64,000 bases of DNA from NCBI GenBank assembly GCA_030849465.1, contig JARVLF010000004.1, positions 186,001 to 250,000 of the forward strand. The letters run 5' to 3'. This stretch comes from Moesziomyces globuligerus (Eukaryota > Basidiomycota > Ustilaginomycetes > Ustilaginales > Ustilaginaceae). The translations under genes and the position numbers were made by a program. The notes beneath the pieces are model-generated. The model saw only the letters and a program-made list of their open reading frames with translations. It was not told the origin of the DNA and did not search any database. Shown here one piece after another: positions 11,002-54,750 of the stretch (position 1 is its first letter; the number at the start of each line of letters is the position of its first letter).

Positions 11002-12792
11002 ATGGCCGCCACTCAGGTGGCTCGCAACTCTGGCTTCTCGTCTTTTGACGACATCGTCAAGATGCCTTCTTCCCCCACCCTCCAGCCGCGCGCTCGAGCC
11101 GTCTCCTCGGCCGCCGCTGACCCCAACACCACGCCCAAGCCGCTCCAAGCTTCATCGTCGGCCGCCAACGGCGCTTCTGCTTCCACCTCATCTACCGCCT
11201 CGGCCTTCAACATGCGCAAGGTCGGCCTCGACCAAAACCAGCCCCCTCCGCCCCCTGGCTCGTCGCCCGAAGTCTTCTTCCGCTACTACCTCGCTGTCGA
11301 GCTCCGCAAAGCTGGTACCCAGCCCAGCGAGGCGCTCCTCGACAGGTACGTCCGCAATCACTTTGATAGCCTCTTCAAGAACAAGACCGCACAGGCCGCC
11401 GCCGCTGCACCCGCTCAGCCAGCTGCTTCTGCGGCCACCACCCCTTCGCAGTCGCACGCCTCCACCTCGGACGTCACCGTCGCCGCTGTCGCGCGTCCCC
11501 CTGCGCCTCAGCCCTCGGCTGCCCAGCTCAAAGCCGCGGCCATCGCAACTCCCGCCTCGGCATCGCACAACGATACCGCCAGCCCGCCCGAGCTCGACAC
11601 CGCCGAGTCGCCCGCCCTTTCCGGCCGCAGCTACTCGCCCGTCGCCACGCCTCCGGCTCTCGGCACCATCGACGAGAACGACAATGCGCTCGTCGACTTC
11701 TCCAGCGTGTTTGGCGAACCCAGCTCGTCGCTGCTCACCGCGCCTGCGCACGCCGCTGGTTCCGACGCCATCAAGTTTGAGGACGAGTCGGACCAGATGC
11801 TTGGCTTCTTCCGCACCTCGCCCTTCCGCACCACCGAGTACGAGTCGGCCACCATCGACCCGCACGTCGTCGAGCAACCCGCCTCGCTGCAGTCCGCCTT
11901 CACCATGCCGCTCGACTCGATCAGTCCATCGCAGCTCGCCGTCGCTCACCCACCCTCGTTCAACGCCAGCCTCAAGGAATCCCACTATCGCGACGACTCG
12001 GCTGCGCCCATGTCCGAAGATGGCATGTCGGACGACGACGACGAGCACCACAGCGGCAGCCGCCACTCTTCGCCGTCCAAGTCGTCGGCCAAGGCGCTGA
12101 GCATGATCCCGATGGCGGTGGGCGACACCAACTACCTCAAGCCCGACCCGGAGGAGTACAAGAAGCTGAGCAGCAAGGAGAAGCGCCAGCTGCGCAACAA
12201 GATCTCGGCGCGCAACTTCCGCACGCGCAGAAAGGAGTACATCACGCACCTCGAGGACGAGATCTCGGACCGCGACACGCTCATCGAGGGGCTCCGCCAG
12301 CAGATCTCGCAGCTGAGCGTCGAGAACAAGAGCCTCAAGGACGAGGTGCGCACCATCAAGGCGCGCACCATTTCGTCGCAGGACGTAAGCAAGATCCTCG
12401 AGGCGCTCCAGACCATGACGTCGACCACGCCTGCAGCGGGCGGCGTGGGCGGCGTGGGCGGCGTGGGCGGCGTGGGCGGCAGCGCCCAGCTCGGCGTGCC
12501 TGGCTCGACGTCTGGCAGGAGCAGCCCGACCAACGAGTTTGGCGCCGCCAGCGGTCCGCTCACGCCCGGAGCGTTCCTCAACTTTGGCAGCGATGCGTCG
12601 AGGCCTGGCACGCCCACGTTTGCCGTGCCGGGCTCGCCGAGGTCGCAGTCGCCGCGTCCGTCGCTGCTGCGAAGGTCTTCGCCCTCGCTGCTGCCCCAGC
12701 CCAACACCAAGAAGGACGTGGCGCCCTCGAGCAGCTTCTGGGGCGGCGTCGGCAGTGTCAATGGCTCCAACTCGTTCATGCCCGTGTGCTGA
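11002..12792 (+). CDS. bZIP transcription factor
   Basis: Single exon, 596 residues. The ATG at 11002 has a good context (CACCATGG); the frame opens 24 bp earlier without a better start. Residues 1-370 are Ala/Ser/Pro-rich with acidic patches. The DNA-binding basic region lies near residues 383-410 (EKRQLRNKISARNFRTRRK) with Asn399 and Arg407 in the bZIP N-x7-R spacing. A leucine-zipper coiled coil follows to about residue 455 (YITHLEDEISDRDTLIEGL and on). Four GGV-type repeats follow near residues 480-493, then a Ser/Pro/Gly tail. The NKISARNF variant of the NxxAAxxC core resembles a filamentous-fungal/basidiomycete bZIP group whose targets I cannot name. Nuclear; function unknown. Confidence 0.93.
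   Translation: MAATQVARNSGFSSFDDIVKMPSSPTLQPRARAVSSAAADPNTTPKPLQASSSAANGASASTSSTASAFNMRKVGLDQNQPPPPPGSSPEVFFRYYLAVELRKAGTQPSEALLDRYVRNHFDSLFKNKTAQAAAAAPAQPAASAATTPSQSHASTSDVTVAAVARPPAPQPSAAQLKAAAIATPASASHNDTASPPELDTAESPALSGRSYSPVATPPALGTIDENDNALVDFSSVFGEPSSSLLTAPAHAAGSDAIKFEDESDQMLGFFRTSPFRTTEYESATIDPHVVEQPASLQSAFTMPLDSISPSQLAVAHPPSFNASLKESHYRDDSAAPMSEDGMSDDDDEHHSGSRHSSPSKSSAKALSMIPMAVGDTNYLKPDPEEYKKLSSKEKRQLRNKISARNFRTRRKEYITHLEDEISDRDTLIEGLRQQISQLSVENKSLKDEVRTIKARTISSQDVSKILEALQTMTSTTPAAGGVGGVGGVGGVGGSAQLGVPGSTSGRSSPTNEFGAASGPLTPGAFLNFGSDASRPGTPTFAVPGSPRSQSPRPSLLRRSSPSLLPQPNTKKDVAPSSSFWGGVGSVNGSNSFMPVC
12439..12480 (+). repeat. GGCGTGGGC nonamer repeat inside the bZIP gene
   Basis: Four perfect copies of a 9-bp unit in phase with the codons give a Gly-Val-Gly repeat in the disordered tail. 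It is likely length-polymorphic between strains (inference). Confidence 0.8.
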
Positions 12793-17173: not shown

Positions 17174-17203
17174 CCATCCACCATCCACCATCCACCATCC
17201 ACC
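17174..17203 (+). repeat. Short tandem repeat (CATCCAC)x4
   Basis: Four near-perfect heptamer units in the CA-rich leader about 250 bp before the MAPK-ELP5 ATG. Confidence 0.75.
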
Positions 17204-17450
17204 ACCTCCACCATCATCACGCCTGCATCTCTCTGGCTAGCATCGTATCGTTCGTAAAGGGTCTTTCGAGCCAAAGCAACTGCATACACCGCACTTCACT
17301 CGTACGCCCTCGTTGCAGCAGCTGATTTGTGCGTAGCGTCGGACGCGGCGGATACACGAACGCCCTCGTGCACGCATCACCCCCGCCTTGCTCAGTCTCA
17401 ACTCACCTGTGCTGCAAGTTTCGTTTGTCGGCCTTGCCGCACCAACCATC

Positions 17451-20400
17451 ATGCCCGCACCCAACGCCACCCCTTCATCGCCTCCTCCGCAGGCGCTTGC
17501 CTCCTCCTCGGCGCCAAAGACGCCACCACCACCACCCTCGCCCTCCTCTTCCTCTTCCGTCGTTCACCAGGTCGGATCAAGACAGGGCACGCGCACCCGC
17601 ACCCGCACCCGTCGCAACATGTCCGCCTCGGCTTCCGCCTCTCACCGCACTCCCCGCTACACCAACGACGACCACCCCATGGCTCCCCACAACCTTGCCG
17701 AGCGCGGCTACCACTCCTTCCGCTGCCTCGGCGTCCCCTTCCACGTAAAGCAGCGCTACACCTTTGTCCGAGAACTCGGCATCGGCGCCTACGGCTGCGT
17801 CGCCCTCTGTCGCGACGAGGTGCTCGATTGCAACGTCGCCATCAAAAAGGTCACTCGCATCTTTGAAAAGGACGTCCTCGCTCGCAGGGCGCTTCGCGAG
17901 GTCGCCCTCCTCCGCCACATTGGCATGTGCGACAACGTCACCGCCCTCCTCGACTTTGACACCGCCTTCATCGACTTTTCCGAGATCTACCTCGTCCTCT
18001 CCGCCAGCGAGGCAGACCTCTCGCAAATCATTCGCTCCGGTCAGGCGCTCTCGGACGCACACCACCAGTACTTTATGGCACAGATCCTTCGCGGCGTCCG
18101 CTACATGCATGCCGCCAAGGTCATCCACCGCGATCTCAAGCCCAGCAACCTTCTCGTCAATGGCGACTGCGCGCTCCGCATCTGCGATTTCGGCTTGGCA
18201 CGTGCTTACGCCGATTCGGACGAATTCCCCACCCCCAACACCGCCACAGAAGATGGCGAGCCACAGCCTAGGACAAGCATCAGCAGCAGTGCCGACGGCG
18301 AACCTGCCGAGGCCAAGTCCATGGCGCAAGAGCCTACCGTCTCCAACGCTGATGCGGCAGTTCAATCCGGCTCGGCCCGCACGCCTTCGCCTTCGTCGGA
18401 CCTTCACGTTCAGCTCCACAAGACCGACTCCAAGGGCAAGCAGAAGCGCCTCAACTACCCTGGTGGTCCGCTCACCGGCTACGTCGCCACAAGATGGTAC
18501 CGTGCGCCCGAGGTCATGCTCTGCTTCCGCGAGGGCTACGGCCCCGAGATGGACATGTGGTCGGTCGGATGCATCCTCGCCGAGCTCATCGCAGGTGCAC
18601 CCATCTTTGGCGGCAAGGACTACGTCGACCAGATTGCACGCATCAACAACGTCCTCGGCTCGCCCTCCGAGGCCGTGCTCGACAAGATTGGCTCCGAGCG
18701 CGCAAAGACCTACATCAAGTCGCTTCCCAACATGCCCGCCGTGCCTCTCGAGAAGCTCTACCCGAACGCCAACCCCGAGGCGCTCGACCTTGTCGCCAAG
18801 CTGCTCACCTGGGACCCCGACCACCGCCTCACCGCCCAGGAAGCGCTCCAGCACCCCTGGCTCAAGGCCTACCACGAGTCCAACGCGCGCTGGCAGCCTC
18901 CCCAACCCTTCGACAAGTTTGGCGATGTCGAGTACATCCACTCGCTCCGCCAGTTCAAGGGCAGCCTCCAGCGCGAGGCCGACGAGATGCGCATGGAACT
19001 CGAGGAGCTCGAGCGCGAAGAGCTCGAGAGCCTCGGTCCCCATGACAAGCCCGACCAAGATTACGCCGACGCATCCAACGGCGAGCCGAGCCATGCCAAC
19101 GGTAACGGAACGAGTAGCAATGGCGCACCACACGAGCCGCAACCCGAGGTAGCTGCGAACGGCAACGGACAGCCCCCAGCACCAGTGGATTCGGATTCGG
19201 GAAACGTCCAGCGGGCAGATGACGCCGTCGACCAGCAAGCTCCGAGCGAGAGCGAGCCCAGCCGTGTCGATGCCGATGCCCAGCCACCGGACGCGAACCG
19301 CCCTCTCGAAGCCTCGGACGAAGATACGGGCGCCGAGACAGACGCGGATGCGCTCTCGTGCAACGCCTCGTCCCAGTCCGGCCACCTGCCTACGGACGCG
19401 GCGTCGTCCAGCTCTTCCATCCGCACACCTTCGTCCACGTCGGGCGCCAGCGCGGACGAGGCCGAGCCGCCGTCGCCGCGTCTGTACGAGACGTGTCGCA
19501 TGTCCACCGCGCTCAAGAGCCGTGCCGAGCATCTCGAAGAGGGCAAGGCGCTGCGCAAGCCGCCGTCGTTTTTTCGGCTCGGGCATGAAGTGGAAGGACG
19601 CCCGTTGATCGATCTCGCTTCCGCGCCCACGCCGGACGAGATGTTCAGCGACGCCTTCATGCCCTCCCAGGTCCTCACCGTGGCTCGCGGTCTGGTCGAG
19701 TACCAGAGCACTGCCGCAGCACTAGCCATGCGTGAGTCGACCCTCCTTCTCCCGTGCAATCCTCAGCACGGTGCCAACAGCACCATCGCAGCGACCAAAG
19801 TCGCGTCGGGCGCTGGCGAAGCCGCCGGCTCGGGCGCGTCTTCGTTCACTTCGGCCAGTCGGGCCCAGAGCGGCTCGCGCGCAGGAGCAGCAGGCGCAGC
19901 GAGCACATCGTCGCTCGGCCAGAGCCTGCTCGACGACACGCTCTTCGCACCCGCCGACGGCTCGTCGAGCGGACTCAAGAGCGCCTCGTCGCAGCGCCAC
20001 GGCAAGCAGCTCGTGGTGCTGCAGGACTCGGTCGTGCAGTCGTCGGCACGGCTGCTGCGCGAGCTCATCCACCGCGCTGCGCTACGCAACCACACGGTGC
20101 TGCTCGTAGCTACGCTCCGCAGACCCGAGACCTACCTCGATGCGCTTGGCGATGCCCGCGTGGCGGCCATCGACGCCACCAGCCTCGGCGACGAGTATGC
20201 CGACGACGCGTCTGCGATCAGCTCGGTCGAGCAGCTCGGCGACCGCATCCGCACCGAGCTCACCGCGCTCAACGCTGGCGTGGCCCGGGCGACGGTGTTG
20301 GTCGACTCGCTCAATGCGCTCGTGCGTGCAAGCAACGTCGCGCGTGCCAGCCGACTGGTGCGCGAGACGCTCGGTCTGATCAGCGCCTCGTCGCGGCTCG

Positions 20401-21254
20401 TCGTTGGCCTGCAAGCGGGCGGCATCGAGGCAAGCACATGTGCTGGGCTAGTAGCGGCACTGCATTCGCCGCTCATCTGGGGCTCGGCCTCGACGGGAGG
20501 CACAGTGCTGACGGTTACGCTTCACCCGCCTGCGGTGCTGCGACATTTGCTCAAAGAGTACGGGCTGCGGCCGCCGTCGAGCTCGTCCGGCGATGCGGAC
20601 GACGAGGTGGATGCGCGCTTCTGGGAGGTGCTGCGCAACGTCGCTGCGCGCGGACCGATGGGCGTACCTGCGTACGAGGCGGGCGGTGGTGCGCAGGGCT
20701 GGTGGAGCGCGAGCGCGGGCGAGGCGTGCGCATTCGAAGCGCTCTCCGCGGGCGTTGAGCTCACTGCTTCGGTTAGTGCGCAGCCGTCGCCTGCGCGCGT
20801 GATCACGCTGGCCGACGTGCTGGATGCGTCGCGCGGAGGATACGTGGTGCTCGAGCTGCATCTGCAGGCGCGCAACGGCAAGAAGCACGACGAGCTGCGT
20901 GCGCTCGGCGTCGGCAGCGATGGCGAGCTCGAGCTGCTGGAGCTCGACATGGCCGACCGACGCGAGGCGACAGTGTCCGCGGAGACGACTGCGCCGACGT
21001 CGGCAGCTGCTGCAGCAGCCGGAGATCAGCACGGAGCTATGATGCAGACGCTGCCGTTCAACCTGGGCGAGACCGAGGAGCAGCGCGCGAGGCGCGAGAC
21101 GGTGCGGCTGCCGTATGCGTACCATCAGGCGGCGCCGGAGAGGGAGGGCGAGCGCGCGCTCAGGGGCAACACGGGCAACGCAAAGATCTTCTTTGAGCCC
21201 GAGCACGACGACGACGAAGACGACGAGGATCCGGACGATGATCTGGACCTGTAG
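17451..21254 (+). CDS. Slt2-like MAP kinase fused in frame to Elongator subunit ELP5
   Basis: One uninterrupted frame of 1267 residues from the ATG at 17451; a second ATG at 17619 is possible. Residues about 100-520 are a MAP kinase: GIGAYG loop, Lys132 in AIKK, IIRSGQALSDAH typical of the cell-wall-integrity Slt2/Mpk1 class, HRDLKPSNLLV, DFG at 246-248, ATRWYRAPE, and YPNANPEALDL. The activation motif is T342-G-Y344 rather than TEY. About 75 extra Ser/Ala/Glu-rich residues separate it from DFG. After an acidic/Ser-rich linker, residues about 850-1267 match ELP5 (Iki1 family): VLQDSVVQSSARLLRELIH, a RecA-like core, then PFNLGETEEQRARRE and the acidic EDPDDDLDL end. ELP5 is part of Elongator's Elp456 ring for wobble-uridine tRNA modification. 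Whether one polypeptide or two transcripts are made is open; no stop or strong intron separates them. Confidence 0.85.
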   Translation: MPAPNATPSSPPPQALASSSAPKTPPPPPSPSSSSSVVHQVGSRQGTRTRTRTRRNMSASASASHRTPRYTNDDHPMAPHNLAERGYHSFRCLGVPFHVKQRYTFVRELGIGAYGCVALCRDEVLDCNVAIKKVTRIFEKDVLARRALREVALLRHIGMCDNVTALLDFDTAFIDFSEIYLVLSASEADLSQIIRSGQALSDAHHQYFMAQILRGVRYMHAAKVIHRDLKPSNLLVNGDCALRICDFGLARAYADSDEFPTPNTATEDGEPQPRTSISSSADGEPAEAKSMAQEPTVSNADAAVQSGSARTPSPSSDLHVQLHKTDSKGKQKRLNYPGGPLTGYVATRWYRAPEVMLCFREGYGPEMDMWSVGCILAELIAGAPIFGGKDYVDQIARINNVLGSPSEAVLDKIGSERAKTYIKSLPNMPAVPLEKLYPNANPEALDLVAKLLTWDPDHRLTAQEALQHPWLKAYHESNARWQPPQPFDKFGDVEYIHSLRQFKGSLQREADEMRMELEELEREELESLGPHDKPDQDYADASNGEPSHANGNGTSSNGAPHEPQPEVAANGNGQPPAPVDSDSGNVQRADDAVDQQAPSESEPSRVDADAQPPDANRPLEASDEDTGAETDADALSCNASSQSGHLPTDAASSSSSIRTPSSTSGASADEAEPPSPRLYETCRMSTALKSRAEHLEEGKALRKPPSFFRLGHEVEGRPLIDLASAPTPDEMFSDAFMPSQVLTVARGLVEYQSTAAALAMRESTLLLPCNPQHGANSTIAATKVASGAGEAAGSGASSFTSASRAQSGSRAGAAGAASTSSLGQSLLDDTLFAPADGSSSGLKSASSQRHGKQLVVLQDSVVQSSARLLRELIHRAALRNHTVLLVATLRRPETYLDALGDARVAAIDATSLGDEYADDASAISSVEQLGDRIRTELTALNAGVARATVLVDSLNALVRASNVARASRLVRETLGLISASSRLVVGLQAGGIEASTCAGLVAALHSPLIWGSASTGGTVLTVTLHPPAVLRHLLKEYGLRPPSSSSGDADDEVDARFWEVLRNVAARGPMGVPAYEAGGGAQGWWSASAGEACAFEALSAGVELTASVSAQPSPARVITLADVLDASRGGYVVLELHLQARNGKKHDELRALGVGSDGELELLELDMADRREATVSAETTAPTSAAAAAAGDQHGAMMQTLPFNLGETEEQRARRETVRLPYAYHQAAPEREGERALRGNTGNAKIFFEPEHDDDEDDEDPDDDLDL
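19728..21254 (+). other. ELP5: ELP5 portion of the fused frame (possible independent start)
   Basis: If ELP5 is expressed separately, the ATG at 19728 (MRESTLLLP...) is the most plausible in-frame start and would give 508 residues. The conserved Iki1 homology begins about 90 residues later. Yeast Elp5 is about 309 residues, so an extended low-complexity N-terminus would remain. No promoter element is evident within the preceding coding sequence. Confidence 0.5.
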
Positions 21255-21751: not shown

Positions 21752-22546
21752 ATGGTGACTTCCAAGACGGCGGTTCTGGCTGGGCAGAAGGTGGTGATCC
21801 TAGGTGGGTCGTCTGGGCTTGGATTCGCGGCTGCGTCTGCGCTGATCGAGGAAGGCGCGCATGTCGTGATCGGTTCCTCGTCTTCGGACCGCGTTTCTGC
21901 TGCCGTTGCCAAGCTCAGCGACGCCTCGATGCAGTACAATGCCGATGCCTCTCGGGTCTCTGGCTTCACGGTGGATCTGTTCGGAGCGTCTGCGGAAACG
22001 TCGCTGCGCAGCTTCTTCTCGCAGGTGGGTTCGTTTGACCATCTGATCTATACGGCGGGCGATACGCTGCGCGGCAAACCGTTGGGCGAATGGTCGTACA
22101 CCGACCTGGTCGAGGCGGGCAACGTGCGCTACTTTTCCGCCATCCTCGCGGTCAAGATCATCACCGAGGATGCACACCTCCTCCGTCGAAACGGCGGCAG
22201 CATCGTCCTCACCACGGGCGTCATCGCCGACAAACCGTTGCCCGGAAGAAGCGCCGTCGCAGGCTTCGCAGCAGCCCTCTACGGACTCACTCGAAACCTC
22301 GCCCTCGATCTCGCGGATAAGGGCATCAGAGTCAACGCCGTCAGTCCAGGTCCGATCCAGACCGAACTCTGGAACGAAATCCCCGAATCGGCAAGAAACG
22401 AGTTCCTAGACGGATTCGCAAACTCGCTCCTCACCCGTCGCGTCGGTCAACCAGAAGACGTCGCCCACGCCTACATCTACCTCCTCAAGGACAGAAACCA
22501 GACGGGCCAGATCATCACCACCGACGGAGGCAGCCTCATCGCGTAG
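21752..22546 (+). CDS. Short-chain dehydrogenase/reductase family protein lacking the catalytic Ser-Tyr-Lys
   Basis: Single exon, 264 residues, a typical classical SDR length. The Rossmann N-terminus has GGSSGLGF in place of TGxxxGxG, and the C-terminal half keeps the family's IRVNAVSPGPIQTELW and TGQIITTDGG. The active-site set is not conserved. The YxxxK motif aligns with Val169 and Ala173 (SAVAGFAAAL), the serine position with Thr155/Gly156 (SIVLTTG), and the NNAG motif reads YTAG. A group of bacterial and fungal SDR-like proteins with this AVAG... variant exists, so this is probably an inherited subfamily rather than decay; the frame is intact and codon use is normal. It may bind NAD(P) without classical redox chemistry. 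It has its own TATA promoter and converges with the amidohydrolase 57 bp away. Confidence 0.85.
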   Translation: MVTSKTAVLAGQKVVILGGSSGLGFAAASALIEEGAHVVIGSSSSDRVSAAVAKLSDASMQYNADASRVSGFTVDLFGASAETSLRSFFSQVGSFDHLIYTAGDTLRGKPLGEWSYTDLVEAGNVRYFSAILAVKIITEDAHLLRRNGGSIVLTTGVIADKPLPGRSAVAGFAAALYGLTRNLALDLADKGIRVNAVSPGPIQTELWNEIPESARNEFLDGFANSLLTRRVGQPEDVAHAYIYLLKDRNQTGQIITTDGGSLIA

Positions 22547-30469: not shown

Positions 30470-32437
30470 ATGCCGGCAGGAGGCGTGCCCAGCTGGGCGG
30501 TCACTTCGTCCTCCTCCGCCATCTTTGGCGGGGGCTCGGGCAAATCCGCCTCCTTCACCAAACCTTCCGACAACAAGCCCTTGCCGTCTTCCAACACGGA
30601 CGCTCCGCCACCTCCACCGCCCTCCTCTGATCCACAGCCATCCACCTCCGCGCCCGAGGCGCCGTACAAGCCGAAGCGTAAGCAGAAGCCCGTGACGCAC
30701 TGCCCTCCGCTCAGCGCGGTCGCCTCGTCGTCGCGCGTGCCCTACTCGATTCCGCACGTCGACGCCGCTGGATGCGAGCACGCGTTGCACCAGCTCATCG
30801 CGGCTCAGGCGACGCGCGCGGGCTTTGATGCAGCCACCACGTCCGCCATGCACGAGGTGAGCCAGCTCACCAACCGGTTCCTCACCTCGGTGTTTGCGGC
30901 AGCGTCGCATGCGGCCGAGTTGGCGGGCCGCGGCCAGCCATCGGCGCGAGACCTGGTGTATGCGCTCGAGACTCACGGACAGCCCGTGCGGGAGCTGCGC
31001 AACTTTCACCGCCAGCAAGTCGCCCATGGCAATGACACGCGATCCTCTGCTGCCGCTGCCCGCTCCAGCGCAGCGCACAACGCCAGCACTCCAGATACGT
31101 ACCGCTTGCGCAGCGCCGCTTCGAGCGACGGCGCGGCGGACGCCGAGCAAGATTTCCTACCGTCCGACTCGGATGACGGCTCGGAGATGGATGCGTGGTC
31201 GGTGAGCAGCCACTCGGATGACGAGCATCCCAACCGGCGCGCCGCTGTGCAGGCTCGCGTAGCCAAGCGCAAGTACGACCGCACACGCGCGCTCGCCAAG
31301 AAGCAGCGCAGGCTCGATAAGCTCGCCGCCGCCTCGGCGCCCGGTGCTTCGGGCTCCGCAACTGGCGCAAGCGTCTCTGCGCGCGACGTACGTGCACTCA
31401 GCTCCGGCGAGCAGGCGTGGCGGCGCATCGCCGAGCATGTGGTGCCGCGGCACCTTCCGGGCATGCCGCCGCGCCATTCGTGGATGCAGACGCCCGCGTA
31501 CCCGACGAATGCCTACGGCGCCTCGCTGGGCGGCGGCGAGGACGACGACTCGGGCGAGAGCGCGCAGGCCAAAGATCCGCTGATGCTCGTCAACAGGAAG
31601 CTCGCAAACGCGCGCCTCGTCGAAGCCTCACTCAGGAAGCTCATCCAAAACACGGACAGTGCGGCCGCCGTGGCATATGCAGCTACTCGGAACGGTGGCG
31701 GAGCAGATGCGACCACGAGCGCCGGGGCCTCGAGTGGAGACAAGGATGCTTCCACGGCGGCGGGGCCATCCGCGACCGGATTCGCCGTGCCCAAGACGCC
31801 AGCGAGCGGTGGAGGAGGGCTCACATTGCGGCTGAAGAACAAGGTGAGCCTGCCGAGCTCGGCGCTCACGTCGACGTCGGCGCCATCGACGTCTGCGCCA
31901 TCGACGCCGCTGGCGAGCCGAAGGGCTTCGATGATTGCGTTCGGAGGCCACGCGGGCGCTGCGGGTGCGCCGGCTACGCCGGTGGGCATGGGCATGTCGA
32001 TGGGGTGGGGCGGAGAGCCGCTCATGTCGCCGCTCACGCCCGTGCACGCTTCGATGGGCGCGGGTGGCGGCGCCACGACGCCGTATCCGCCTACTCCCGG
32101 AGGCGTGTATGGCCACTACTTTGGCTCGACTCCGGGCGCGCAGGGCGGAGCAGGCCGAGGCTACCGGTCTCGCTCGCAGTCGATCGCTGCAGGCGCCGGT
32201 ACGGACCCATATAGCGGTGCGCTCGGAGCGGAGGCGGGTGCTGGGACGGACAAGCTGGGCATCCGAGTGCCCGGGCCGGTCAACTACAAGAACGTGTGGT
32301 ACGCGCCAGGCAGCACCATCGCTAGCGGCGGACTTGGCGGAAGCGCTGCTGGCGCTGGCAGTGGAGGTGCGCGGACGCAGACGGCAGCAGGCAACCATCC
32401 GCGCTCCGTCAAGCGGCTGCGCAAGTGGAAGGTGTAG
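30470..32437 (+). CDS. TAF8: TFIID subunit TAF8 (bromodomain-associated histone fold)
   Basis: Single exon, 655 residues from the ATG at 30470; the frame opens at a GTG 36 bp earlier. After a Ser/Pro-rich start and a basic KPKRKQK patch, residues about 85-190 form the histone fold: ALHQLIAAQATRAGFD, HEVSQLTNRFLTSVFAAAS, and ARDLVYALETHGQPVREL. The TAF8 C-terminal motif follows an acidic/basic linker: PRHLPGMPPRHSWMQTPAYP (compare LPPKHTYKFTPVYP in animals), then KLANARLVEASLRKLIQ. The rest is Ala/Gly/Ser-rich, ending in basic SVKRLRKWKV. TAF8 pairs with TAF10 and recruits TAF2 in TFIID. The large disordered tail makes it roughly twice the length of human TAF8. Confidence 0.87.
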   Translation: MPAGGVPSWAVTSSSSAIFGGGSGKSASFTKPSDNKPLPSSNTDAPPPPPPSSDPQPSTSAPEAPYKPKRKQKPVTHCPPLSAVASSSRVPYSIPHVDAAGCEHALHQLIAAQATRAGFDAATTSAMHEVSQLTNRFLTSVFAAASHAAELAGRGQPSARDLVYALETHGQPVRELRNFHRQQVAHGNDTRSSAAAARSSAAHNASTPDTYRLRSAASSDGAADAEQDFLPSDSDDGSEMDAWSVSSHSDDEHPNRRAAVQARVAKRKYDRTRALAKKQRRLDKLAAASAPGASGSATGASVSARDVRALSSGEQAWRRIAEHVVPRHLPGMPPRHSWMQTPAYPTNAYGASLGGGEDDDSGESAQAKDPLMLVNRKLANARLVEASLRKLIQNTDSAAAVAYAATRNGGGADATTSAGASSGDKDASTAAGPSATGFAVPKTPASGGGGLTLRLKNKVSLPSSALTSTSAPSTSAPSTPLASRRASMIAFGGHAGAAGAPATPVGMGMSMGWGGEPLMSPLTPVHASMGAGGGATTPYPPTPGGVYGHYFGSTPGAQGGAGRGYRSRSQSIAAGAGTDPYSGALGAEAGAGTDKLGIRVPGPVNYKNVWYAPGSTIASGGLGGSAAGAGSGGARTQTAAGNHPRSVKRLRKWKV

Positions 32438-51711: not shown

Positions 51712-54700
51712 ATGTCCAAAGGACCGTCCAGTCGAGATGAATCACGCATCGGCGACTTTGTTGTCCAACACGAGATCGGCAAGGGCTCCTTCGCCGTCGT
51801 CCACAAGGGCTATCGCATCCAGCCCCGCGAGCCCGTCGCCATCAAGATCGTCACACGCAAGAAGCTCACGCCCAAGCTCCTTGACAATCTCGAGGGCGAG
51901 ATCGCCATCCTGAAAGCCATCCATCACCCCAACATTGTCGAGCTCAAGGAATGCCTCAAGACAGAGCACCAGATCTACCTCGTCATGGCATTCTGCGCTT
52001 CCGGCGATCTCTCCCAGTACATCAAGAAGCGCTTCGACATCTACGAACGTGCCGGCATCCCGCAACCAGGCGCACTCTCCCGCGCAACGCCATCGTATCC
52101 GCATCCCGCAGATGGGGGCCTCAACGAGACCATCGTGCGTTCCATCCTCACCCAGCTGGCCGCCGCCCTCGAGTTCATGCGAGGCCGCGATATCGTCCAT
52201 CGCGACATCAAGCCCCAGAACCTCCTTCTCCAACCGCCCGACCCAGCCTTCCTCGCCCTCGGCAATCCACCAGAGATCCCCCAGGTCAAGGTCGCCGACT
52301 TTGGCTTTGCTCGACATCTCAGCGTCAACACGCTTGCGGAGACCCTCTGCGGCTCGCCTCTCTACATGGCTCCCGAGATCCTCCGCTACGAAAAGTACGA
52401 TGCCAAGGCCGATCTCTGGTCCGTCGGCGCAGTCCTCTTCGAGATGACCGTAGGAAAGCCACCGTTCAAGGCAGCAAATCACGTCGAGCTCCTCAAGCGC
52501 ATCGAGCGTGGTGAGGATCGCATCAAGTTCCCCGATGAGCGATCCGCAGGCTCCCTCGCCAGAGAGGCGGCTCGCCGCCAAGAGCTCGGAGAACCGCCCC
52601 TTCTTCCCCCGCATCCAGTCTCCGACGATGTTAAGACCCTCATCCGTCAGCTCCTCCGCCAGCGTCCCGTCGGTCGCATGAGCTTCGACGATTTCTTCAG
52701 CAGCCCCGTCATCCGCGATTTCAGGGCTTCCATTCGCCCACACGCACAAGCTGACGCCTTGGAGAGGTACGAGGATCTGCAAAGGAGCGACCGCAGTCTC
52801 ATCCTTCCGTCCTCATCCGCTATCAAGGAAGCGTCTCCTCCACGCGCTGAGGCTCCGTCCGACGCCACAAATTCGCCCACTGCGATCAGCCCAGCATCGC
52901 CTCGCCCCCGAGCTGAACCCAGAGCGCCACAGGAGGACAAGCCGTCAACTAGACAGGCAGACGTCTCGCAAATAGCCGCAGCATTGCCAGCCCCTCTCAG
53001 TCGGACGCCTTCAGAGGCCACCAGGCCGACGCGGGTCATTCCTCGCACCTTCTCCGCAAAGTACGTCACAGGCGAGCCCGATCGCCGTCACGACGAGGCA
53101 GACAAACGAGCTCCTGCCAATATGGCACGCACACCCAGTTCGCCCGGTTTCCCGGACAAATCGCTCGTCTCCGACGGTCGCGACGACGACACAGGCGCTC
53201 ACCCTGGCGCGAGCAATCCGGCGGCTTCAAGAGAGGGCGAAGATAGCTTCCTCGGAAAGGAGTACGTCATGATCGAGAAACGCAACGTTGAAGTCAACGC
53301 GCTCGCCGACGAACTCGCCGCTTCGCCGCAGACCCGAATGTCGCTAGCTTCGCGAAGGCCCTCACGACTGTCGCGGCTAAGTTCGGGTGCTCTTCCCACA
53401 CCCTCGGACATTTCGCCTCCGACGCCTGCATCAACCAATCCCGGCTCCAATCCCATCCGAATCACCAGCAACGTCAGCTCTTCCCCCACGGCTGGTGCCT
53501 TCGCCCTCCCGCCTGGCGCACGGCCTTCGTCAGTGCCGCGTCGAACCAGTCTCTCTTCCTCAGGCTCGCCCTCGACTCGCCAGACCGGACAGGTCATCAC
53601 TGCGGGTGATGCGGCTGCGAGCACACAGACATCGCGTCGCGATGGCCCCTCCTCATCGTCGCCACGGGAAGACGTGAGCATGCTCGGCCAGAAGCTGGCC
53701 AGCATCGGACTGCCTGGTTCGTCTGGGGGAGGGCCCTCGAGTGCTCTGGCCAAAGCGATCAGCATGGCGTCTCTGCGCTTATTTGGCGTTCCGTCAGGCG
53801 TCTCGCTTCGAGATGCTGCTGCGCTTGTCCGCACACGCGCCCAGAGGCGCGGCATCTTGAGATCGTCATCCGAGACGTACGATGAGGTCGAGCTGAGCCT
53901 CCTGAGCGCGCTCGAGGACCTGGGGCAGAAGGCTTTTGTTCTTTCAGAGTTTGCAGACTCCAAGCTCGCCCACTTCTTCCCGGATGGCCCGCATCAACTT
54001 TCCCAAGACCTGGACGCCTCGACTGCGACAGGTGTCTCACCGGGACGCCTCAGCGCGCAAGGCTCTGCACGCAGGGTTGGGTCGGTATCGTCGTCGTCAT
54101 CGTCGGCACTGGATCCGCTCGCCGCCGAAGCCGCATCAGCGGAAGCACTGATGCTGTACGTGCGCAGCTTGGCGTTCCTCCAACGAGCCATCGGGCTTAC
54201 GCGAAAGCATGTGGAGTCGCGTACGCGCCCGGGTGCGCCCGCTGTGACGAGTGCCGAGCTCAATGACGTGGTGCAGTGGCTGCGAGCGCGCTTCAACGAG
54301 GTATACGACAAGGCCGATTTTGCAAGGTCGCGATGCAACGAGTTACCCGAATCGGCGCAGCAGGTGGACAAGCTGATCTTTGACAAAGCGGTCGAGGTTG
54401 CCCGTGCGGCGGCTACGGACGAACTGGAGAACAACCGCGAAGGCAGCGGATGGGATCCGTCGCACTGCCTCCTGGCGTACGAAACGGCCAGCTCGATGCT
54501 CTCGTCGCTGCTGGATCCGGGCGAGGACGCTCTCAGCCTGAGCGAAGGTAGCATTCTGATGATTGACAAGTACGTCAAGAGCATCAACAAGCGCCTCGTC
54601 ACACTGCAGGAGCAGTTTGGCGGTAGCACGTCCGGTAACATGGCCGTCGGCAGCAGTCCAGGCGGGGTGGATGCCGAGACTCGCCCGGGCGAGAGTCGCA

Positions 54701-54750
54701 GCAGGACTGATTCGCCGCTGTCGAATCCTTCACCGGCGTTTTCTCGCTGA
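51712..54750 (+). CDS. ATG1: Autophagy-initiating Ser/Thr kinase ATG1
   Basis: Single exon, 1012 residues. The kinase domain opens the protein (residues about 14-345): FVVQHEIGKGSFAVVHKG, catalytic Lys in VAIKIVTRKKL, HRDIKPQNLLL, DFGFARHLS, then TLCGSPLYMAPEIL with the activating Thr, and a long insert in the C-lobe (SLAREAARRQELGEPPLLPPH). A disordered Ser/Pro-rich middle includes EYVMIEKRNVEVNALADELA, a stretch conserved in fungal Atg1. The C-terminal MIT-like early-autophagy domain (about 735-945) contains SEFADSKLAHFF and ALMLYVRSLAFLQRAIGL, and would bind Atg13. ATG1 acts in the Atg1-Atg13-Atg17 complex at the phagophore assembly site under TOR control. Confidence 0.95.
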   Translation: MSKGPSSRDESRIGDFVVQHEIGKGSFAVVHKGYRIQPREPVAIKIVTRKKLTPKLLDNLEGEIAILKAIHHPNIVELKECLKTEHQIYLVMAFCASGDLSQYIKKRFDIYERAGIPQPGALSRATPSYPHPADGGLNETIVRSILTQLAAALEFMRGRDIVHRDIKPQNLLLQPPDPAFLALGNPPEIPQVKVADFGFARHLSVNTLAETLCGSPLYMAPEILRYEKYDAKADLWSVGAVLFEMTVGKPPFKAANHVELLKRIERGEDRIKFPDERSAGSLAREAARRQELGEPPLLPPHPVSDDVKTLIRQLLRQRPVGRMSFDDFFSSPVIRDFRASIRPHAQADALERYEDLQRSDRSLILPSSSAIKEASPPRAEAPSDATNSPTAISPASPRPRAEPRAPQEDKPSTRQADVSQIAAALPAPLSRTPSEATRPTRVIPRTFSAKYVTGEPDRRHDEADKRAPANMARTPSSPGFPDKSLVSDGRDDDTGAHPGASNPAASREGEDSFLGKEYVMIEKRNVEVNALADELAASPQTRMSLASRRPSRLSRLSSGALPTPSDISPPTPASTNPGSNPIRITSNVSSSPTAGAFALPPGARPSSVPRRTSLSSSGSPSTRQTGQVITAGDAAASTQTSRRDGPSSSSPREDVSMLGQKLASIGLPGSSGGGPSSALAKAISMASLRLFGVPSGVSLRDAAALVRTRAQRRGILRSSSETYDEVELSLLSALEDLGQKAFVLSEFADSKLAHFFPDGPHQLSQDLDASTATGVSPGRLSAQGSARRVGSVSSSSSSALDPLAAEAASAEALMLYVRSLAFLQRAIGLTRKHVESRTRPGAPAVTSAELNDVVQWLRARFNEVYDKADFARSRCNELPESAQQVDKLIFDKAVEVARAAATDELENNREGSGWDPSHCLLAYETASSMLSSLLDPGEDALSLSEGSILMIDKYVKSINKRLVTLQEQFGGSTSGNMAVGSSPGGVDAETRPGESRSRTDSPLSNPSPAFSR

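What the first reader, a model, noticed from the sequence alone, without database searches (positions are those of the whole stretch)
17451..21254. MAP kinase and Elongator subunit ELP5 share one uninterrupted reading frame
The N-terminal half is an Slt2-class MAPK and the C-terminal half carries the full Iki1/ELP5 homology including its EDPDDDL end. No stop codon and no convincing intron lies between them. The known proteins are separate in yeasts and animals. A true fusion would tie tRNA wobble-uridine modification to cell-wall-integrity signalling. The alternative is two transcripts, with the kinase stop created by an unseen splice and ELP5 starting at the ATG at 19728.
Basis: partly seen in the sequence, partly recalled or inferred. 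Interest (0 to 1): 0.88.

Follow-up and report, generated by a model that had tools for sequence, protein, structure and literature searches.

The report
MAP kinase fused to Elongator ELP5
In this fungal genome the only ELP5 gene found, for one part of the Elongator machine that modifies certain transfer RNAs, reads straight on from a MAP-kinase gene, so one protein probably carries both a signalling enzyme and an Elongator part; RNA data and related species are still needed to prove it.

Summary
One frame (ATG 17451 or 17619, stop 21252-21254) encodes a MAP kinase, a 318-residue linker and ELP5/Iki1. A codon model trained on the same contig reads the linker as coding in this frame; both flanks read as non-coding. 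The one strong splice donor between the halves (19732) has no CTNAY branch-point motif for 330 nt. No second ELP5 was found; ELP1, ELP4 and ELP6 were each found once.

The interpretation needs correcting. A separate canonical Slt2/Mpk1 with TEY exists. The fused kinase is a divergent second member of that clade: TGY, an ~80-residue insertion before it, and an altered docking motif. A link to cell-wall integrity is not supported.

My reading: a kinase tethered to the Elp456 ring through Elp5's N-terminus, which in yeast lies at a contact with Elp1's phosphorylated loop (PMC10018365). Against Elp1 as target: the Elp1 C-terminal stretch read here has no S/T-P site.

The parts
17451..17756 (+). 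N-terminal extension; candidate starts ATG 17451 and ATG 17619 (the latter gives MSASASASHRTP, resembling MSAVPSTPHRTP of the genome's canonical Slt2)
   Evidence: coding model: window 17380-17499 favours this frame, 17440-17559 and 17500-17619 another, this frame again from 17560
17757..18227 (+). MAP kinase domain, first part (aa 103-259): AIKK lysine, HRD, DFG present
   Evidence: Pfam Pkinase; alignment
18225..18467 (+). about 80-residue low-complexity insertion in the activation segment, between the DFGLAR region and TGY
   Evidence: reads as coding in frame; no GTRNG[TCA] donor in it
18474..18482 (+). TGY dual-phosphorylation motif (T at aa 342 from ATG 17451)
18468..19040 (+). MAP kinase domain, second part, with the tail that follows; HESNAR where the genome's other MAPKs read HDPxDEP
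19041..19490 (+). linker A, acidic, poor in hydrophobic residues
   Evidence: coding model, composition
19491..19730 (+). linker B, more hydrophobic, helix-predicted segment of unknown family; contains in-frame ATGs 19500, 19641, 19659, 19728
   Evidence: composition, low-confidence model, coding model, no Pfam hit listed there
19731..19994 (+). linker C, Ser/Thr/Ala/Gly-rich; begins at a strong GTGAGT donor (19732) with no CTNAY motif before 20064
19992..21251 (+). ELP5/Iki1 domain with acidic C-terminal end; the only ELP5 match found in the genome
21252..21254 (+). stop codon TAG

Best explanation
One gene encodes one polypeptide: a divergent Slt2-clade MAP kinase joined by a 318-residue linker to the only ELP5 found in the genome. 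Shown here: the open, uninterrupted frame that reads as coding throughout, and the identity of both domains. Inferred: the protein is made and stays whole, and enters the Elp4-Elp5-Elp6 ring through its ELP5 half, which would put up to two kinase domains beside each ring. In yeast the Elp5 N-terminus lies at the contact (CP2) that also involves the phosphorylated loop of Elp1 (PMC10018365), so a kinase fused there would stand beside a known control point of Elongator. It would phosphorylate Elongator subunits or nearby factors in response to whatever activates its TGY loop, or hold the kinase at Elongator. Elp4 (6 S/T-P sites in its frame) fits a proline-directed kinase better than the Elp1 C-terminus does. 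The score below is for a single fused product; I give about 0.35-0.4 to kinase control of Elongator.
For: Open frame and both families over cut-off. Linker coding in the same frame, flanks non-coding. No convincing intron between the halves. Chance of the open linker about 1% by shuffles and 2e-4 by non-coding stop frequency. No unfused ELP5 found, while ELP1, ELP4 and ELP6 are present, so if Elongator works here its Elp5 most likely comes from this frame. Kinase catalytic motifs present. Elp5 N-terminus at the CP2 contact with the Elp1 loop (PMC10018365); that loop's phosphosites matter for tRNA modification in yeast (PMC4287497, passages).
Against: No RNA or protein data. A GTGAGT donor stands at 19732 and in-frame ATGs at 19500-19728. 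CTGAC is not universal in this genome's introns: one of two uniquely resolved kinase introns has CTCAC instead (L047), the motif also present in the candidate intron 19484-19706. The 424-aa Elp1 C-terminal stretch read here holds no S/T-P site. Single-sequence models were uninformative.
Confidence: 0.6

Rival explanations
1. Two overlapping products from one coding stretch: a kinase form made by alternative splicing or early polyadenylation, and a separate ELP5 form from an internal promoter and an in-frame ATG (19500-19728).
For: Strong donor GTGAGT at 19732 and four in-frame ATGs in linker B. A candidate intron 19484-19706 (GTACGA donor, CTCAC) would give the kinase a stop at aa 683; CTCAC also occurs in one of the two uniquely resolved kinase introns.
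Against: No CTNAY motif between 19732 and 20064; the only CTGAC in the frame is at 20508, whereas 7 of 7 credible introns of the contig scan carry CTGAC. The 223-nt length and GTACGA donor of 19484-19706 match none of those 7 (66-103 nt). No non-coding interval for UTRs or a promoter.
Confidence: 0.24
2. The fused protein is made, but the kinase has no role in Elongator; the join is a neutral accident of neighbouring genes, kept because ELP5 tolerates an N-terminal extension. (This is compatible with the best explanation's first half, so the scores overlap.)
For: The kinase is fast evolving (branch 1.39 against 0.12 for the genome's canonical Slt2), its docking motif is altered, and the Elp1 stretch read has no S/T-P site. 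N- and C-terminal extensions of yeast Elp4 and Elp5 stay flexible (PMC10018365).
Against: Catalytic motifs and a TxY motif are kept.
Confidence: 0.25
3. Fused translation product that is cut in the linker into kinase and ELP5.
For: Long, low-complexity linker.
Against: No 2A-like motif in the protein. Protease sites were not searched for.
Confidence: 0.07
4. Assembly or base error removed a stop between two genes.
For: Only one assembly could be examined.
Against: A lost stop would not make ~950 nt of linker look coding in the same frame.
Confidence: 0.04

Closest known systems
Slt2/Mpk1/MPS1 cell-wall-integrity MAP kinases
   Same: The best three matches among solved structures are MPS1-type MAPK chains (their fungal origin is recalled); 52% identical to the genome's own Slt2 over aligned positions, grouped with Slt2 and MPS1 at 93/93.
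   Different: TGY for TEY, ~80-residue activation-segment insertion, altered acidic motif, long branch, fused C-terminus; a canonical Slt2 exists beside it. Human p38-beta (MAPK11) is nearly as similar (50.2%).
Cryptococcus neoformans Mpk2 (CNAG_04282), second CWI-clade MAPK
   Same: Also a second Slt2-clade paralogue with long N- and C-terminal extensions (807 aa; PMC11253600, section 5).
ELP5/Iki1, Elongator subunit of the Elp456 ring
   Same: Pfam Elong_Iki1 over cut-off, acidic end, single copy found beside ELP1, ELP4, ELP6.
   Different: The solved yeast Elp5 chain is a separate 309-residue protein; here it is the C-terminal part of a 1267-residue frame.
Signalling control of Elongator by separate kinases (yeast Hrr25 on Elp1; fission yeast Gsk3 on Elp4)
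   Same: Kinases acting on Elongator tune tRNA modification (PMC4287497 passages; PMC8594718 passages).
   Different: Those are separate proteins of other kinase families; a MAP kinase fused to an Elongator subunit did not appear in the listings of the searches made.

Membership tests
Slt2/CWI MAP kinase | MAPK catalytic core (AIKK, HRDLKP, DFG, TxY, APE) | tested here: met
Slt2/CWI MAP kinase | Groups with Slt2/MPS1 rather than Fus3/Kss1 or Hog1/p38 | tested here: met
   93/93 in a 7-row tree, on a long branch that the program flags as unsure; in the 8-row tree with a CDK the Slt2 group itself was left open, only the Kpp2/Kpp6/Hog1/p38 group being supported, 91/93
Slt2/CWI MAP kinase | TEY activation motif | tested here: not met
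   TGY; TEY v TGY classes in PMC5854419 (passages)
Slt2/CWI MAP kinase | Acidic HDPxDEP-type docking motif C-terminal to the core (its role is recalled, not from a call) | tested here: not met
   HESNAR at the aligned place; HDPxDEP in the 4 other MAPKs of this genome that were aligned, HDASDEP in MPS1
Slt2/CWI MAP kinase | Acts in the Bck1-Mkk1 pathway | not testable with these tools
   no expression or mutant data
ELP5/Iki1 | Elong_Iki1 profile over its cut-off | tested here: met
   63.4 bits against 22.5 for the part from 19728
ELP5/Iki1 | Single copy in a genome with the other ring subunits | tested here: met
   PF10483 only here; ELP4 and ELP6 one match each
ELP5/Iki1 | RecA-like fold | tested here: inconclusive
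   single-sequence model pLDDT 36; no fold search made
ELP5/Iki1 | Assembly into the Elp456 hexamer | not testable with these tools
   needs protein work
True gene fusion | One open frame through both domains, coding throughout | tested here: met
True gene fusion | No intron with the genome's own signals between the domains | tested here: inconclusive
   none convincing, but the intron set is small and one weak candidate, 19484-19706, shares its CTCAC with a resolved intron
True gene fusion | Single transcript and single protein | not testable with these tools
   no RNA or protein data
True gene fusion | Same join in related species | not testable with these tools
   protein database switched off; no fungal relatives in the two collections scanned

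The most novel reading that the evidence does not exclude
A MAP kinase built into Elongator: in this lineage a second Slt2-clade kinase that has taken a TGY switch and lost the usual docking motif is covalently part of the Elp456 ring, so that a stress signal acts on wobble-uridine modification, and so on codon-biased translation, at the complex itself.
Probability: 0.35. Interest if true: 0.85.

Novelty: new variant of a known kind. Interest (0 to 1): 0.6.

Why it matters
Elongator is known to be tuned by separate kinases (PMC4287497 and PMC8594718, passages) and to be needed in fission yeast for stress responses that run through a MAP kinase pathway (PMC3715433, abstract). How cellular pathways control Elongator is called a matter still to be deciphered (PMC8594718, passage). 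A natural fusion would show one direct route, with a clear test: inactivate the kinase in the intact fusion and measure wobble uridines. It would also show a second Slt2-clade MAPK in another fungus, which PMC11253600 says is 'not observed in other fungi' besides C. neoformans.

Tried and rejected
Considered and rejected or put aside: (1) the kinase as the genome's cell-wall-integrity MAPK: a canonical TEY Slt2 lies on C15. (2) The activation-segment insertion as an intron: no GTRNG[TCA] donor there, and it reads as coding. (3) Separation at donor 19732: no CTNAY motif before 20064; of 23 AG acceptors enumerated within 300 nt, 8 keep the frame and 15 shift it. (4) Candidate intron 19484-19706: its GTACGA donor and 223-nt length match none of the 7 credible introns; its CTCAC does occur in one kinase intron (L047), so it is put aside, not excluded. 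(5) Direct Elp1 C-terminal phosphorylation by a proline-directed kinase: 0 S/T-P in the 424 aa read.

Led nowhere: ELP5 part in viral contigs, 0 relatives of 11 pattern matches; whole frame in prokaryote contigs, 1 of 52, a Nocardia locus matching kinase residues 91-259; linker in own genome, itself and 2 weak matches, E 0.03 and 0.3; NCBIfam, 18 prokaryotic kinase-type models, all under their cut-offs; structure models of ELP5 and linker B, pLDDT 36 and 52, so no fold search was made; 10 literature searches, of which five listed only part of their hits (15 of 89, 15 of 19, 8 of 17, 8 of 10 and 10 of 52).

Limits: intron signals rest on 8 introns from a coding-model scan (one, 43 nt, lies antisense inside this ELP5 region and is probably false; I left it out) and on 5 kinase gaps (L046 and L047 gave one solution each, the first with CTGAC, the second with CTCAC; L048 and L050 gave several; L049 gave none). 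The scan itself required a YTNAY motif, so only the specific CTGAC form is informative. The coding model was trained on 72 ORFs chosen by length alone, without annotation, with this frame left out.
Full report
OBSERVATION. The + strand frame 17388-21254 is open. From ATG 17451 it encodes 1267 residues. Pfam finds Pkinase (E 6.5e-57) and Elong_Iki1 (E 4.7e-16), both above their cut-offs, in the one frame. The acidic end resembles that of yeast Elp5, though the whole match to the solved yeast protein is weak (E 0.0096). ATG 17619 is an alternative start: it gives MSASASASHRTP, like MSAVPSTPHRTP of the genome's canonical Slt2. The coding model is divided there: window 17380-17499 favours this frame, 17440-17559 and 17500-17619 favour another.

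IS THE LINKER CODING? I trained a three-periodic, third-order Markov model on 72 long ORFs (142 kb) of the same contig, leaving this frame out. The flanks 17200-17439 and beyond 21254 score as non-coding. From 17560 to 21254 this frame beats non-coding in every 120-nt window. It beats the other five frames in all of those windows but three, 19780-19899, 20560-20679 and 20620-20739, where a minus-strand frame is slightly preferred. In six 240-nt windows across 19041-20000 the log-likelihood ratios are 12.0-23.9, the 35th-70th percentile of 556 training windows; 0.019-0.025 of 160 non-coding windows reach as high with the best of three frames. GC3 is 0.73-0.78 in the three linker parts against a mean of 0.76 in training ORFs. 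The linker stays open in 57 of 5000 dinucleotide shuffles; with the stop frequency of non-coding DNA on this contig, 318 codons stay open with probability 2e-4. Same-strand neighbouring ORFs of 300 aa or more on this contig lie a median 1079 nt apart (33 pairs, minimum 66; smaller genes may lie between), whereas here no non-coding gap is seen.

SPLICING. A scan of 260 kb for necessary introns gave 8 candidates; leaving out one 43-nt antisense candidate inside this gene, the other 7 are 66-103 nt long, start GTRNG, and all 7 show CTGAC upstream of the acceptor. Of 5 gaps in kinase genes elsewhere, two resolved to one intron each, one with CTGAC and one with CTCAC and no CTGAC; two gave several solutions and one gave none. 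In the frame the only CTGAC is at 20508, inside ELP5. A strong donor, GTGAGT, stands at 19732, but the next CTNAY is at 20064. One candidate, 19484-19706, has a GTACGA donor and CTCAC and would give the kinase a stop at residue 683. No intron is convincing, and alternative splicing is not excluded.

THE KINASE IS NOT THE CANONICAL SLT2. The genome search with the kinase part found the query itself and next a frame at C15:1200482-1201522, 51% identical, with TEY at residue 194 from its MSAVPST start. The published U. maydis Mpk1 mutant changes T193 and Y195 (PMC2895642, passage), so C15 is very probably the Mpk1 orthologue. Four other MAPKs of this genome were read: that one, two more with TEY and a Hog1-like one with TGY. 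The window kinase groups with Slt2 and MPS1 (93/93) but on a branch of 1.39 against 0.12 and 0.27; with a CDK added the Slt2 group is left unresolved. Identities are 52.0% to Slt2, 50.8% to MPS1 and 50.2% to human p38-beta. It has TGY, an insertion of about 80 residues before it, and HESNAR where the four others read HDPxDEP. It should be called a Slt2-related MAPK, not the cell-wall-integrity MAPK. C. neoformans has a long second Slt2-clade kinase, Mpk2, of 807 residues (PMC11253600, section 5), and the authors state that two such kinases are not observed in other fungi (passage); this genome appears to be a counterexample. Orthology with Mpk2 was not tested.

ELP5 IS SINGLE COPY AS FAR AS SEEN. 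PF10483 matches only this frame (2 pieces). ELP4, ELP6 and the ELP1 propeller are each found once (the ELP6 match is weak, E 2.8e-6). ELP2 and ELP3 were not searched. The search reads six frames without introns, so a much-split or diverged copy could be missed. If Elongator works in this organism, its Elp5 most likely comes from this frame.

MECHANISM. Elp456 is a ring of two copies each of Elp4, Elp5 and Elp6; [quoted passage not shown] contact point CP2 involves the N-terminus of Elp5 and an Elp1 loop carrying functional phosphosites (PMC10018365, section 25 read in full). [quoted passage not shown] In fission yeast Gsk3 acts on Elp4 (PMC8594718, passages), and cells lacking Elp3 translate Atf1, a factor of the Sty1 pathway, poorly after stress (PMC3715433, abstract). 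A kinase on the Elp5 N-terminus would thus sit at a known control point. I tested one consequence: a 424-residue frame downstream of the ELP1 propeller keeps the loop in outline (SDTSTQMTQFTRYT; matched to the yeast peptide by eye) but has no S/T-P, while the 610-codon ELP4 frame has 6 (no background rate was computed). If the kinase is proline-directed like other MAPKs, Elp4 or an outside protein is a likelier target than the Elp1 C-terminus. All steps after 'the frame reads as coding throughout' are inference.

LITERATURE. Of 10 searches, no listing showed a kinase-ELP5 fusion (asked most directly; titles and abstract starts only, and five of the ten listed part of their hits). The library lacks most subscription journals, and sequence databases that may already hold the joined protein could not be reached, so novelty is provisional.

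VERDICT. Real and unusual at DNA level; very probably one coding frame; fused protein likely but unproven; functional coupling plausible; link to cell-wall integrity not supported.

Noticed in passing
G000:C15:1200482-1201522 (L013) and window 17757-18920: The genome appears to hold two Slt2-clade MAPKs, whereas PMC11253600 says two CWI MAPK isoforms are not observed in fungi other than C. neoformans.
   Followed up: partly
window 18225-18467: About 80-residue low-complexity insertion in the kinase activation segment just before TGY, with TP/SP sites at aa 261, 311 and 313.
   Followed up: partly
window 19491-19730: More hydrophobic, helix-predicted linker segment with no Pfam hit listed and no clear paralogue in the genome; may be a tail of the kinase or a separate module.
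   Followed up: partly
window 17451-17619: Start codon unsettled: similarity to the canonical Slt2 N-terminus favours ATG 17619; the coding model is divided over 17380-17619.
   Followed up: partly
L052 (G000:C16:909300-910700): The Elp1 C-terminal phospholoop is conserved in outline, with threonine where yeast has Ser-1209 (by eye), and the 424-aa stretch has no S/T-P site.
   Followed up: partly
window 51712-54750: Frame with a kinase domain and both Atg1-type MIT domains (Pfam): an Atg1-like autophagy kinase.
   Followed up: no
window 11002-12792, 30470-32437, 21752-22546: Neighbouring frames: bZIP factor, TAF8-like TFIID subunit, short-chain dehydrogenase (Pfam).
   Followed up: no
L047 (G000:C8:70800-71300): A kinase-gene intron with CTCAC instead of the CTGAC branch-point form seen in the other uniquely resolved introns.
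   Followed up: no
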